Positions 9,881 through 44,311 of a stretch of DNA of 44,980 nt are shown one piece after another. The first letter of the stretch is position 1. Each line of letters begins with the position of its first letter. The translations under genes were made by a program, and so were the position numbers. Under the pieces are notes generated by a model. The model was not told where the DNA came from and did not search any database. It worked only from the letters and a program-made list of their open reading frames with translations. The stretch lies in the NCBI RefSeq assembly GCF_001939115.1, contig NZ_MQTZ01000004.1:1-44980 (forward strand), read 5' to 3'. Source of the stretch: Leptolyngbya sp. 'hensonii'. Its GTDB lineage: Bacteria; Cyanobacteriota; Cyanobacteriia; GCF-001939115.

Positions 9881-10371
9881 CACCCCGGCCCTGGGGGCCA
9901 CCCCTCCCCAGAGGGGATTTTAGCCGATCCCTCGTACCCAGGCTCATCCCTCGTACCCAGGCTCATCCCTCGTACCCAGGCTCATCCCTCGTACCCAGGC
10001 TCATCCCTCGTACCCAGGCTCATCCCTCGTACCCAGGCTCACCCCTCGTGCCCAGGCTCATCCCTCGTACCCAGGCTCATCCCTCGTACCCAGGCTCTGC
10101 CTGGGTGCGCCAAGCCTGAAACCCAACACCAGTAAGGATCAGCACTGGAGGGGAGTTGCAGACGGGGTCAGACTGTACCATGGGGTTAACCTTCCGGCAC
10201 CTGAGCAGAGCGGATGATCATGATTTTATGATTGAGATCAGCCTATTTCATCGTCCCGATCGCCAGGCAGAGAAAAACTGACATGATTGCATTTCCCGAA
10301 AAAGAGGACATGACTCCAGTGGCATACCTGGACTGGGAAGCACAACAGGAAACCAGATATGAATATATCAA
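9881..10371 (+). repeat. Duplicated block, right copy, with nine 19-bp units
   Basis: This is homologous to 7209-7522. The 19-bp unit ATCCCTCGTACCCAGGCTC occurs nine times without spacers at 9927-10097; one unit (the seventh) carries two changes. The palindrome CCCAGGC-TCT-GCCTGGG closes the array. About 70 bp at 10120-10189 are extra relative to the left copy. The block runs into the intact Uma2 gene. The open frames across the array are by-products of the periodicity. Confidence 0.9.
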
Positions 10372-11246: not shown

Positions 11247-13319
11247 TCAATTAGCCCCCTGGATTTCTGCCAGTTTTTGAGCTGCATAATCACGCAATAC
11301 GGGAACACCGATCGCAGTTCCGATCGCAGAGGCCGCTTCACAAGAGGCGATCGCCGCTTCCACCTGACCCAATTGGAGTTGGGCATTGACAATGAACCGG
11401 AGCAAGTTTCGCCCTTGGCTGTAGCGATCGCCAATCTGTAGATAGATCTGTTGAGCAGATTGAAAATAATCCAGGGCCGAAACCGGATCATCTTGTAAAC
11501 TGCCCAAACCGAGTAAGGTGTTGGCTTCCCCCAGCCGATCCCCCACCTGGCGATAAATCTGCAACGCCTCCTGGTAGCGATTCAGGGCTTCATCGCGTTG
11601 GTCGAGAAACTGCAAGACATCGCCGATCGCTTTTAAGGTGTTGGCTTCCCCCAGCCGAGCCCCCACCTGGCGATAAATCTGCAACGCCTCCTGGTAGCGA
11701 TTCAGGGCTTCACTGCTTTGTTTGAGAAACTGCAAGACATCGCCGATCGCTTTTAAGGTGTTGGCTTCCCCCAGCCGAGCCCCCACCTGGCGATAAATCT
11801 GCAACGCCTCCTGGTAGCGATTCAGGGCTTCACTGCTTTGTTTGAGAAACTGCAAGACATCGCCGATCGCTTTTAAGGTGTTGGCTTCCCCCAGCCGATC
11901 CCCCACCTGGCGATAAATCTGCAACGCCTCCTGGTAGCGATTCAGGGCTTCACTGCTTTGTTTGAGAAACTGCAAGACATCGCCAAAAACTTTCTGAAAA
12001 TCGGCAAAGGGTTTTGAAGTCTCCGGGGGCCAACTGTCCCCTAACCGCGAGTAAAGCTGATAACGAGTCGCACTATACCCTCGGAGCGCTAAAAACTGGT
12101 CACAATCATCCCTGCCGTCTGTACCGTAGTAAACAACCTCCAAGGCAGTGGCATAGGCTCCCAGTTCACAGCAGTGGTGAAACAGTTCCAGGTAAGGAAT
12201 GGCTGCGTCTTCTTCATCTGCTGCCATCAGTCGTTGTTGGCGCGATTGTTGATCAAAATAAGCTGCTGCTTTTTGGTGGGCCTGGGTCAGATCTACATTC
12301 CACTGCACATAGTGAGCAATGGCAGCCTGCACCTGATAGCGCCGGTTAGTGGCCTGTCCTAACTCTTCCAGCAACGATCGGGTAATTAATTCCCGTAGTT
12401 GTTGACGAGTTTCCAGTTCTCTCTCAGAGGCATCTTCCACCATAGAAATAGCCGCCTGAATCGTAAACGGAACCCGATAGACACTCAGATTTTGCAGCAA
12501 AGTCTGTTGTTGGGGATTCAGTCGTTCCCAATGCTGTTGCAAAATCCATTCTAGACAGGTTTCCACCGTCCGATGTTCGCCAGTGGCCCGTTTTGCCATC
12601 TGCTCAAATTCTGTCAGTTTGAGCCGTTCCGCCTCCCTCAGTTGCCCATCACAATAGTTGACCAGAAATGTAGCCGCCAGTTTCAGGGTCAGGGGATGCC
12701 CGTTGAGCAACTGAGAGAACTGTTGCAAGCTCGCCTCGCCTCCTTCCACCCCCCAGGCTGCGAGCAATTTGCCTCCAGCAACTGCATTCAGTCCTTCCAG
12801 CATCCGCCAGGTCGGAACCTCTCGCAGCGATCGGGGCTGTTCTCGCGTGGTCACCAGCACAGCACTGGTCTGGCCTTGGGCTAACCAGCGGCTAAAAAAT
12901 TGATGATAGCCAGGATCTCGCCACTGCTGTTCCAGGTTCAACAGGGTTTCTAGATTATCCACCACCAGTAAATAGCGCTGTTGCCTCAGACAGTGCAGCA
13001 GGACGTTAATCTGCTCTGTGGTGCCTGCAGCGGCGAACCGCTGTTCTTGTTCTGGGCTCAGGGTCCTGGCAAACGTCTGATAGACCTTTTTGGCAAAAGC
13101 GAGAAATTCAGGCTGCTGACTGACATCCGCCCACAACACTGCTCCAAAACCCAACTCCGTTGATTGCTCATACAGGTATGCCGCCAGCCAGGATTTCCCG
13201 ATGCCCCCAATACCCTGAAGCCCAACGATCGCAGTAGCTTCGTTCCGGAGCCAACCCTGGACGATCTCCAATTCCCGCCGATCCTGCCATTTCTTCAGCA
13301 CCGGCGGCAGCGTAATCAC
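11247..13319 (-). CDS. STAND (NB-ARC-like) ATPase with TPR repeats
   Basis: The 690-aa protein begins with an NTPase module: Walker A GIGGIGKS at 36-43, Walker B 'RYLLVVDN' with Asp121, 'VTTRE' near 158, and an NB-ARC-type 'LNGHPLTLKLAA' near 205. A helical middle region (~250-430) follows, then TPR-like 40-residue repeats ('DVLQFLKQSSEALNRYQEAL') and a less regular tail. STAND proteins act as oligomerising signal switches, often in defence; that role here is inference. The annotated start GTG has a TGA 17 codons upstream in the same frame that ends the 152-aa ORF at 13368-13826, so both may be parts of one interrupted gene. A diverged fragment of a paralogue lies at 18163-18602. Confidence 0.85.
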   Translation of the reverse strand: MITLPPVLKKWQDRRELEIVQGWLRNEATAIVGLQGIGGIGKSWLAAYLYEQSTELGFGAVLWADVSQQPEFLAFAKKVYQTFARTLSPEQEQRFAAAGTTEQINVLLHCLRQQRYLLVVDNLETLLNLEQQWRDPGYHQFFSRWLAQGQTSAVLVTTREQPRSLREVPTWRMLEGLNAVAGGKLLAAWGVEGGEASLQQFSQLLNGHPLTLKLAATFLVNYCDGQLREAERLKLTEFEQMAKRATGEHRTVETCLEWILQQHWERLNPQQQTLLQNLSVYRVPFTIQAAISMVEDASERELETRQQLRELITRSLLEELGQATNRRYQVQAAIAHYVQWNVDLTQAHQKAAAYFDQQSRQQRLMAADEEDAAIPYLELFHHCCELGAYATALEVVYYGTDGRDDCDQFLALRGYSATRYQLYSRLGDSWPPETSKPFADFQKVFGDVLQFLKQSSEALNRYQEALQIYRQVGDRLGEANTLKAIGDVLQFLKQSSEALNRYQEALQIYRQVGARLGEANTLKAIGDVLQFLKQSSEALNRYQEALQIYRQVGARLGEANTLKAIGDVLQFLDQRDEALNRYQEALQIYRQVGDRLGEANTLLGLGSLQDDPVSALDYFQSAQQIYLQIGDRYSQGRNLLRFIVNAQLQLGQVEAAIASCEAASAIGTAIGVPVLRDYAAQKLAEIQGAN
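11516..11995 (-). repeat. Four near-identical 120-bp TPR-coding units
   Basis: Four head-to-tail units of exactly 120 bp (11516-11635, 11636-11755, 11756-11875, 11876-11995) differ at only a few positions, for example 'gatccccc' versus 'gagccccc'. Each encodes one 40-residue repeat. The near-identity at DNA level points to recent expansion or gene conversion. The unit nearest 11516 encodes a variant 'DQRDEALNRY' in place of 'KQSSEALNRY'. Confidence 0.95.
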
Positions 13320-14006: not shown

Positions 14007-14071
14007 GCTCCCTTCTCCTGCGGGAGAAGGGTTGGGGATGAGGGTAATTCATATTTGCATTCAGCAAAGCC
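14007..14071. mobile_element. MITE family 1, truncated right half
   Basis: About 65 bp match the right half of the complete elements, from 'ctcccttctcctgcgggag' through to the terminal 'CATTCAGCAAAGCC'. The left half is replaced by the 41-bp duplication, so this copy is not mobile by itself. Confidence 0.75.
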
Positions 14072-17014: not shown

Positions 17015-17153
17015 GGCGTTGCTGAATAGAAGTATGATTTTCGTGCTTGAGCCTTATGCAGCCCTCACCCTAACCAACAAGAGTTTTAGCTCCCTTCTCC
17101 TGCGGGAGAAGGGTTGGGGATGAGGGTAATTCATATTTGCATTCAGCAAAGCC
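17015..17153. mobile_element. MITE family 1, internally deleted copy
   Basis: It has the same ends as the complete copies (GGCGTTGCTGAATAG ... CATTCAGCAAAGCC), but ~18 bp around the inner 'CTCTCCCAAAGGAGAG' hairpin are missing, giving 139 bp. The outer 8-mers (gcattttg / ggaaaatc) do not match, so no target duplication is present. It may mark a recombination junction between the cassette block and the IS630 remnant. Confidence 0.8.
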
Positions 17154-18162: not shown

Positions 18163-18602
18163 GTGTTGGCTTCCCCCAGCCGATCCCCCACCTGGCGATA
18201 AATCGGCAACGCCTCCTGGTAGCGATTCAGGGCTTCATCGCGTTGGTCGAGAAACTGCAAGACATCGCCAAAAACTTTCTGGGCTTTGCTGAATGCAAAT
18301 ATGAATTACCCTCATCCCCAACCCTTCTCCCGCAGGAGAAGGGAGCTAAAACTCTTGTTCCCTCTCCTTTGGGAGAGGGCTAGGGTGAGGGCTGCATAAG
18401 GCTCAAGCACGAAAATCATCCTTCTATTCAGCAACGCCACTTTCTGAAAATCGGCAAAGGGTTTTGAAGTCTTCGGAGGCCAACTGCCCCCTAACCGCGA
18501 GTAAAGCTGATAACCAGTCGCACTATACCCTCGGAGCGCTAAAAACTGGTCACAATTATCCCTGCCGTCTGTGCCGTGGTAAACAACCTCCAAGGCAGTG
18601 GC
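18163..18602 (-). pseudogene. Fragment of a STAND-TPR gene, split by a MITE
   Basis: 18163-18281 matches a TPR unit of the gene at 11247-13319 (the 'DQRDEALNRYQEAL' variant) joined directly to 'aaaaactttctg'. 18439-18602 continues with the sequence that follows at 11984-12147. One TPR unit stands where the intact gene has four. The fragment is a few percent diverged and both its ends break off abruptly. A family-1 MITE (18282-18438) lies in the middle. Confidence 0.85.
18282..18438. mobile_element. MITE family 1, complete copy with 8-bp target duplication
   Basis: 157 bp with imperfect terminal inverted repeats (GGCTTTGCTGAATGCAAATA and, inverse at the other end, GGCGTTGCTGAATAGAAGGA). Inside are two hairpins built of 'CTTCTCCCGCAGGAGAAG' and 'CTCTCCTTTGGGAGAG'. 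It is flanked by ACTTTCTG at 18274-18281 and 18439-18446. The homologous unoccupied site is present at 11986-11993 in the STAND-TPR gene with a single ACTTTCTG, which proves the insertion. No ORF. Confidence 0.95.
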
Positions 18603-18673
18603 AGCCTGGGCGCGAGGCCAGGGGGTGGCGCGTAGCGCTGGGGTGGGTCTGGGTGGGCGTGAGGGAAGGATGT

Positions 18674-24271: not shown

Positions 24272-24535
24272 GACGATGCCTCCAGTCTACTCAAGCTTTT
24301 TTCTGTAGTAATGATATGGACAATCGCTATATTGAGACAAAATATGGAAGCCTGTCACTTTTGCAGTGATGCTCTCTAGCCCTCATCCCCCAGCCCCTTC
24401 TCCCTTTTTGGGCTACTGTGTACTCATAATCCCCTCCTGGGAGGGGTAGGGATGGGTTTGAGGGTTATGCGTCAAATCCTGGTGGGTCGAGTAAAGTAGA
24501 GAGACATTTACTCCGAAGCATAACCTCTGGAAGGT

Positions 24536-25140
24536 TTGCGTTGTGGTCATCCCAATACTCATAAACATGGTAAACCTCCAAACGGAGGCCAACGGTACTT
24601 CTGCCTCCAGTGCCAGCAGACGTTCAATGAACGGTTTGACACGACCAGGCCCATAGCGTTCGCGCAGCGTTGCCGGAAGGCACTAGGGAGTAGTCTACGA
24701 GGCATTAGCCACACCAGTGGACTTGCCTATAACACTGTTCTCAGCCTTGTTTGTGCCGCCAGTCAGCAGGCCCAATGGGTCCATAATGCTGAAATCCAAG
24801 CGGTGCAAACTGAGGCAGTGAGTGCGAATGAGTTATGGTCATTTGTAGCAAGAAACAAAAGCAATACCTCCCAGAAGAATTAGAGGTGGGGAATTGCTGG
24901 ATTGAGGTGAGTCTGTCAAATTCCAGTGGCGTGATTTTAGCTGCTAGAGTTGGCAAACATACGGATGAGTTGATCGAATCGTTGGTGCTCAACACGGAAG
25001 GAAAGACAGAGTGTAAGCCATGGAATAGTGATGATTGGGGAGGTTACGAACGGGTCTTACCGCCTGAAATTCTCCCCTACATCGGCAAAGACAAGACCCA
25101 AAGGTTAGAGGCCAATGGCATTGTCAGGCAGCAAATTTAG
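24536..25140 (+). pseudogene. IS1-family transposase remnant
   Basis: The first frame begins with the IS1-type zinc ribbon ('MRCGHPNTHKHGKPPNGGQR', 'YFCLQCQQTFNERF') and continues to 'GISHTSGLAYNTVLSLVCAA' and 'SANELWSFVARN'. A second, overlapping frame from ~24835 holds 'CWIEVSLSNSSGVILAARVG' and 'DDWGGYERVLPPEI', the DDE core, ending 'NGIVRQQI' at a stop. The last third ('HRR...' part) is missing and the middle of the ribbon-HTH linker is replaced by a short 'gcgttcgcgcagcgttgcc' repeat. Some IS1 elements use programmed frameshifting, but the truncation makes this copy inactive. Confidence 0.8.
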
Positions 25141-25790: not shown

Positions 25791-26136
25791 AACGCTCTCC
25801 AGTTTTCCAATTCTGATCGGCTTGATCGTCCTTCTGATAATCAACTGTATTTCTGGCATATGAAGAGGTATGCCAAAGCTTGATAACTGTTTCCGTTCCT
25901 TTGTAGGGAAGAGTGCATCCCACTTTTATAATCCTTTCCTCAAAGTCCTGCTCCAGAGCAGGAGAGGGACTTTGAATCTGCCTCCCCTTCTCCCTTTTTC
26001 GGGCTAGCAAAAACTGGGTTGGCGGTGGGGTTCACTTCGTTTCACCCCACTAACGCTAAAAGATTTGTCAGGCAATCCGCTTCTCCCCTCCTGGGAGGGG
26101 TGGCCCGCAGGGCCGGGGTGGGTTTGAGAGCAGAGA

Positions 26137-26304
26137 TCGTCACTCCCACTCAAGTTGTCGTGACTTCCACTCCAGTTGTCGTCAGGAATGGATAAGCGGT
26201 CGTGACTTCCACTCAAGCGATCGTGACTTCCACTCAAGTTGTCATGACCTCCACTCAAGCGATCGTTAGAAATAGAGAAGTTGTCGTGACTCCCGCTCCA
26301 GTTG
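26137..26304. repeat. Eight 21-bp units with HIP1-like motif
   Basis: Eight consecutive units of exactly 21 bp follow the form TCGTGACTTCCACTCAAG + 3 nt. The variable triplets alternate between 'ttg' and 'cga', the latter creating GCGATCG at unit junctions. Units 3 (26179-26199) and 7 (26263-26283) are strongly diverged. Both strands stay open because the period is seven codons, but I see no independent evidence of translation. It ends 15 bp before the stop of the 5'-nucleotidase gene. The remainder of 25860-26136 has 'CCCCTCCTGGGAGGGGTGG'-type repeats and no gene. Confidence 0.9.
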
Positions 26305-44155: not shown

Positions 44156-44311
44156 GGCGTTGCTGAATAGAAGTATGATTTTCGTGCTTGAGCCTTATGC
44201 AGCCCTCACCCTAGCCCTCTCCCAAAGGAGAGGGAACAAGAGTTTTAGCTCCCTTCTCCTGCGGGAGAAGGGTTGGGGATGAGGGTATTCATATTTGCAT
44301 TCAGCAAAGCC
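44156..44311. mobile_element. MITE family 1, complete copy with 8-bp target duplication
   Basis: 156 bp from GGCGTTGCTGAATAG to CATTCAGCAAAGCC, flanked by GTTCATCA at 44148-44155 and 44312-44319. It is inverse in orientation to the copy at 18282-18438 and nearly identical to it. It interrupts the coiled-coil gene; exact removal restores the reading frame. Confidence 0.95.

What the first reader, a model, noticed from the sequence alone, without database searches (positions are those of the whole stretch)
18274..18446. MITE insertion with an unoccupied paralogous site in the same window
The 157-bp element is flanked by ACTTTCTG on both sides. The paralogous sequence at 11984-12003 has the same text with a single ACTTTCTG and no element. 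This pair proves transposition with an 8-bp target duplication and dates the insertion after the duplication of the STAND-TPR fragment.
Basis: seen in the sequence. Interest (0 to 1): 0.6.

Follow-up and report, generated by a model that had tools for sequence, protein, structure and literature searches.

The report
IS1-type MITE carrying triplex-motif pair
A 157-base "hitch-hiker" transposon with no genes of its own has jumped, recently and about 50 times, around a cyanobacterial genome, and an untouched sister copy of the target lies a few kilobases away; it probably moves with a borrowed IS1-family enzyme and carries a repeat motif, able to form triple-helical DNA, whose spread had no known vehicle.

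Summary
A 157-bp element (18282-18438) is flanked by ACTTTCTG on both sides. Its flanks match one ungapped segment at 11878-12153 that holds a single ACTTTCTG (119+165 nt, 13 mismatches).

The assembly holds 48 copies with both ends. Of these, 32 have perfect 8-bp duplications, 6 have one mismatch and 2 have 10-bp duplications; 8 copies are identical. So this is a recently active MITE.

Its ends match those of 754-757-bp cyanobacterial IS1-family elements, which have 8-10-bp duplications and encode an IS1 transposase. The host assembly holds only a 289-bp deleted remnant of that IS, so the helper is lost or unassembled.

It is an inverted pair of BoxC/PIT intrastrand-triplex motifs. All 46 such motifs found in this genome lie in full or truncated MITE copies. 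The same core occurs across the class: in IS1-ended MITEs, in at least two elements with unrelated ends (CTRRTTGACTGACAAA, 9-bp duplication), and alone. Literature held here reports no vehicle for this motif.

The element is a new member of a known kind. The cargo link is the interesting part. The Nezha paper and ISfinder could not be checked.

The parts
18274..18281 (.). left target-site duplication ACTTTCTG
18282..18438 (+). MITE, 157 bp, identical to the family consensus
18282..18307 (+). left terminal inverted repeat GGCTTTGCTGAATGCAAATATGAATT
   Evidence: 26 nt, 77% complementary to 18413-18438; IS1-type end
18309..18343 (-). BoxC/PIT-like triplex motif on the minus strand: CCCTTCTCC-loop-GGAGAAGGG-loop-GGATGAGGG
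   Evidence: compared with the consensus in PMC4666352
18360..18391 (+). BoxC/PIT-like triplex motif on the plus strand: CCCTCTCC-TTTG-GGAGAGGG-CTA-GGGTGAGGG
18413..18438 (-). right terminal inverted repeat (rc GGCGTTGCTGAATAGAAGGATGATTT)
18439..18446 (.). right target-site duplication ACTTTCTG
18163..18603 (-). duplicated fragment of a TPR gene that received the MITE
11878..12153 (-). unoccupied paralogous segment inside the NB-ARC/TPR gene 11247-13319; single ACTTTCTG at 11989-11996
44156..44311 (-). second full copy (156 bp) with 8-bp duplication GTTCATCA
17015..17153 (-). third copy (139 bp, core deletion, no target duplication found)
14007..14071 (-). truncated copy (left half only)

Best explanation
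The element is a non-autonomous IS1-family transposon (MITE). An IS1-family transposase acting in trans recognises its ends, GGC(T/G)TTGCTGAATnnnnnnATGA(A/T)TT, and inserts it at A+T-rich sites, usually duplicating 8 bp. Here it entered a duplicated TPR-gene fragment after that fragment had split from the intact gene. Between the ends lies an 84-bp cargo: two BoxC/PIT intrastrand-triplex motifs in inverted orientation, which the MITE has spread through this genome. Shown: insertion with duplication, pre-insertion site, copy number, shared ends with real IS1 elements, cargo identity by sequence. Inferred: mobilisation by IS1 transposase, recent loss or non-assembly of the helper, insertion after the duplication.
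For: 48 both-ended copies; 32 perfect 8-bp duplications, 6 with one mismatch, 2 of 10 bp; mean pairwise divergence of the 157-bp copies 1.4%; duplications 35.5% GC against 52% for the window. End pattern: 119 genomic hits against 2 for the reversed control. IS1-family elements of 754-757 bp with the same ends and 8-10-bp duplications in other cyanobacteria (L131, L136, L140, L149) and on plasmids of Calothrix sp. 336/3, Microcystis aeruginosa NIES-2481 and Nostoc sp. C052. Their transposase hits NF033558 IS1 at 258.7 bits (cut-off 100) and PF03400. For 22 of 30 loci found with this transposase clade the matching end was scored beside the C-terminal match; in 6 more it lies there but contig starts shift the position. 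Of 39 other IS1 loci, 3 had a loose end-like match within about 900 bp. Own remnant has those ends plus an IS1 transposase fragment. All 46 BoxC-type motifs lie in MITE copies, three of them truncated.
Against: No intact matching IS1 is in the 77-contig assembly; seven intact IS1 copies there have different ends (GGTTGTGCATCAAA). Ten of 48 copies lack an 8-bp duplication within one mismatch (two of these have 10 bp). The MITE ends are not identical to any one IS1 element examined. No transposition was observed directly.
Confidence: 0.87

Rival explanations
1. The MITE was present before the duplication and was lost precisely from the copy at 11989.
For: An empty site with one duplication copy is also what precise excision leaves (logic only).
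Against: The focal MITE equals the consensus while flanks differ 4.2-4.6%; P about 0.03 for no change over that time. Precise excision is rare for IS1-type elements (general knowledge).
Confidence: 0.05
2. The MITE is moved by another transposase family, for example one of the seven intact IS1 copies with other ends, or an IS6/IS5-type enzyme; the IS1-like ends would be coincidence.
For: No intact matching IS1 in the assembly; GGC-TTG-type ends also occur in IS6 and IS5 groups (from memory).
Against: Transposase-to-end association in the matching clade is close to one-to-one, other IS1 loci nearly all lack the end, and two IS-internal deletion forms with these ends carry IS1 transposase fragments (L036 and L076).
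Confidence: 0.08
3. The paired BoxC core, not the IS1-type ends, is what disperses, and the ends are accidental passengers.
For: Core-only matches (positions about 28-111) occur in many genomes without IS1 ends.
Against: In this genome target duplications abut the IS1-type ends, not the core, and IS1-ended MITEs with unrelated interiors transpose too.
Confidence: 0.05

Closest known systems
IS1 family insertion sequences of cyanobacteria (NF033558 / PF03400; annotated on Calothrix sp. 336/3 and Microcystis NIES-2481 plasmids)
   Same: terminal sequence GGCGTTGC(TG/AT)AATnnnnnnATGAAT, 8-10-bp target duplication
   Different: The MITE has no transposase gene and its interior is unrelated to the IS
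Nezha, MITE of Anabaena variabilis and Nostoc sp. PCC 7120 (host names from memory), proposed to be moved by ISNpu3-like elements (cited in PMC3049150 and PMC10969869)
   Same: a small non-autonomous cyanobacterial element with terminal inverted repeats
   Different: Cannot be compared: the original paper is not held and its sequence is not known to me
187-bp Microcystis PCC 7806 MITE (PMC11448079)
   Same: 8-bp target duplications, stem-loop fold, about 30 copies
   Different: ends GGCTCTTCG, assigned to an ISL3-family helper
BoxC / PIT / TM-ECO intrastrand-triplex motif (PMC4666352)
   Same: core matches CCCTCNCCC-N3-6-GGGNGAGGG-N3-GGGNGAGGG closely; E. coli also has close inverted pairs
   Different: In E. 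coli no link to mobile elements was found; here the motif sits inside a transposing MITE

Membership tests
MITE | short, no transposase gene | tested here: met
   157 bp; no IS fragment inside
MITE | terminal inverted repeats | tested here: met
   26-nt arms, 77% complementary; outer 13 nt differ by one base
MITE | target-site duplication at insertion | tested here: met
   32/48 perfect 8 bp, 6 with one mismatch, 2 of 10 bp; empty site found
MITE | high copy number in one genome | tested here: met
   48 both-ended copies
IS1-family-derived element | ends shared with an element encoding an IS1 transposase | tested here: met
IS1-family-derived element | 8-9 bp (variable) target duplication | tested here: met
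   8 bp, some 10 bp, in MITE and IS1 alike
IS1-family-derived element | intact helper transposase in the same genome (supporting, not defining, for a MITE) | tested here: not met
   only a 289-bp deleted remnant in the assembly; a helper may be lost or unassembled
IS1-family-derived element | mobilisation by IS1 transposase in trans | not testable with these tools
   needs a transposition assay
Nezha | same sequence and ends as published Nezha | not testable with these tools
   paper not held
BoxC/PIT triplex motif | C-stem, loop, G-stem, 3-nt loop, second G-stem | tested here: met
   plus-strand copy CCCTCTCCTTTGGGAGAGGGCTAGGGTGAGGG: 8-nt C-stem instead of 9, 8-nt first G-stem
BoxC/PIT triplex motif | actual triplex formation | not testable with these tools
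   needs CD or NMR; the cited study saw triplex on single strands in vitro only

The most novel reading that the evidence does not exclude
IS1-type ends form a class-wide cyanobacterial platform that has repeatedly taken up unrelated dispersed repeats as cargo. The inverted BoxC/PIT triplex pair is one such cargo that also rides on MITEs with unrelated ends (CTRRTTGACTGACAAA, 9-bp duplication). This would explain how triplex motifs became so numerous in cyanobacterial genomes.
Probability: 0.45. Interest if true: 0.6.

Novelty: new member of a known kind. Interest (0 to 1): 0.42.

Why it matters
Occupied and empty sites in one sequence are a clean, checkable case of MITE transposition. More important, the MITE gives a concrete vehicle for BoxC/PIT triplex motifs: the 2015 survey found them very abundant in cyanobacteria but saw no mobility function near the E. 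coli copies. It also makes testable whether such repeats spread by their own properties or as cargo. The 12-bp deletion that removes the third triplex strand in 6 of 48 copies gives a natural series for testing motif instability.

Tried and rejected
First guess that the seven near-identical IS1 copies are the helper: rejected, ends differ. HTH_Tnp_IS1 (PF12759) search brought mostly another IS1 clade with ends GGT-TGTTCTAGAC; no paired matching ends. Exact MITE pattern in named genomes: no hit, so the host species could not be named. Phages: no match. Plasmids: core-only fragments. Rfam: no match. A first copy census with loose matching misplaced the ends and was discarded (redone). One Pfam call failed on a wrong frame. 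Chance was rejected by shuffled or reversed controls. Literature search for the end sequence and for BoxC with MITE gave nothing direct.

Full report
Observation. The window is contig 4 of a 5.94-Mb, 77-contig genome. At 18274-18446 there is ACTTTCTG, 157 bp, ACTTTCTG. At 11989-11996 there is one ACTTTCTG without an element. The left flank (119 nt) and right flank (165 nt) match 11878-12153 without gaps, 13 mismatches in all and none in the 20 nt left of the element. The left flank belongs to the last of four tandem TPR units, so aligning from 11516 gives extra repeats. No other copy of the segment exists in the assembly.

Family. A search of the whole genome found at least 40 copies at 98-100% identity, the limit of the list. 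The end motif has 119 hits against 2 for the reversed control. From the fetched loci I counted 48 distinct copies with both ends: 37 of 157 bp, 6 of 145 bp, 2 of 156 bp, and one each of 139, 158 and 161 bp. Of these, 32 have a perfect 8-bp duplication, 6 one with a single mismatch, 2 a 10-bp one. The duplications are A+T-rich (35.5% GC; window 52%). Eight of the 157-bp copies equal the consensus and mean pairwise divergence is 1.4%. Most copies lie outside long reading frames; only 3 of 48, the focal one included, have open frames running on at both edges. This is a recently active MITE.

Dating. Flank divergence of 4.2-4.6% predicts about 3.3-3.6 changes in a MITE as old as the split, and the focal copy has none relative to the consensus (P about 0.03 under equal rates). 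Insertion after the duplication is thus the better reading. It is an inference, because precise loss or recombination cannot be excluded from one genome.

Helper. In the own genome one 289-bp element with these ends contains an IS1 transposase fragment. A probe from it found intact or partial relatives in 102 of 291 genomes. Full elements of 752-757 bp have ends GGCGTTGCATAAT.. and GGCGTTGCTGAAT.. and several have 8-10-bp duplications. Annotated IS1 transposases on plasmids of Calothrix sp. 336/3, Microcystis aeruginosa NIES-2481 and Nostoc sp. C052 have the same type of ends with 8-, 10- and 8-bp duplications. The protein is an IS1 transposase by NCBIfam and Pfam. The end was scored beside the C-terminal match in 22 of 30 loci of this clade, and lies there in 6 more where a short contig start shifts the position. 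Of 39 loci of other IS1 types 3 have a loose end-like match nearby. The own assembly has no intact copy, and its seven intact IS1 copies have other ends. The helper has been lost, or is not assembled.

Cargo. The interior is an inverted repeat pair; each half reads C-stem, loop, G-stem, 3-nt loop, G-stem. This is the BoxC/PIT/TM-ECO motif described as forming intrastrand triplexes in vitro (PMC4666352). A search of the genome with the plus-strand motif found 46 places, control 0; 43 coincide with the counted copies and the remaining three are truncated MITE copies. In this genome the motif is thus spread by the MITE. The 145-bp copies lack the 12 bp that hold the third strand; five of six have their own perfect duplication, the sixth one mismatch, and the break register differs between them (L038 against the others), which suggests repeated slippage. 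Single-stranded DNA and RNA of the element fold far better than shuffles (z -5.5 and -6.6).

Distribution. With the MITE as query, 191 of 390 class genomes match, but many of the weaker matches cover only positions about 28-111, the core. Full IS1-ended MITEs with this core and perfect duplications occur in other families (L319, L320, L327, L328, L330, L339). IS1-ended MITEs with quite different interiors also exist, several with duplications. The same core also sits in elements with unrelated ends CTRRTTGACTGACAAA and a 9-bp duplication (L179 exact, L169 one mismatch). In the less biased set (first BoxC hit per genome, L168-L197) four loci, own genome included, have both IS1-type ends under the loose criterion, several one, and many neither. 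So the core is wider than the MITE and behaves as exchangeable cargo; how it got between the ends is unknown.

Known or new. MITEs, IS1 elements and BoxC motifs are all known. The held literature reports no vehicle for BoxC: the 2015 study states that no mobility functions were found near the E. coli copies. The Nezha paper is not held, so I cannot exclude that Nezha belongs to this family. I therefore file the element as a new member of a known kind and give the cargo-platform idea as the novel case.

Noticed in passing
window 24530-25140: A broken IS1-family transposase gene of another clade (about 74-75% DNA identity to the genome's other IS1 elements), interrupted by stops and a frameshift.
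   Followed up: partly
window 14007-14071: Left half of the MITE ends abruptly beside a G-rich run; looks like a copy cut by a later rearrangement.
   Followed up: partly
L169, L179 (BoxC core at about 1501): The same triplex-pair core sits between unrelated inverted ends CTRRTTGACTGACAAA with 9-bp direct repeats (exact in L179, one mismatch in L169), suggesting a second MITE type with the same cargo.
   Followed up: partly
L025 (G000:C1:23133-23289): One MITE copy is flanked by sequences that are inverted, not direct, copies of each other (CCAGAAA / TTTCTGG); may reflect an inversion between MITE copies or intramolecular transposition.
   Followed up: no
   Followed up: no
window 11516-11990: Four near-identical 120-bp TPR units in tandem in the NB-ARC/TPR gene; the fragment at 18163 has one.
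   Followed up: no
window 9940-10119 and 26004-26258: Short tandem repeats (reading as repeated RLIPRTQAHPSYPGSSLVP and LSGSHDNLSGSHDR).
   Followed up: no
L208, L216, L225, L261, L276: IS1-ended MITEs of Okeania, Nostoc and a Microcoleaceae genome whose interior is a tandem array of GACACGGGGACACGG-like repeats.
   Followed up: no
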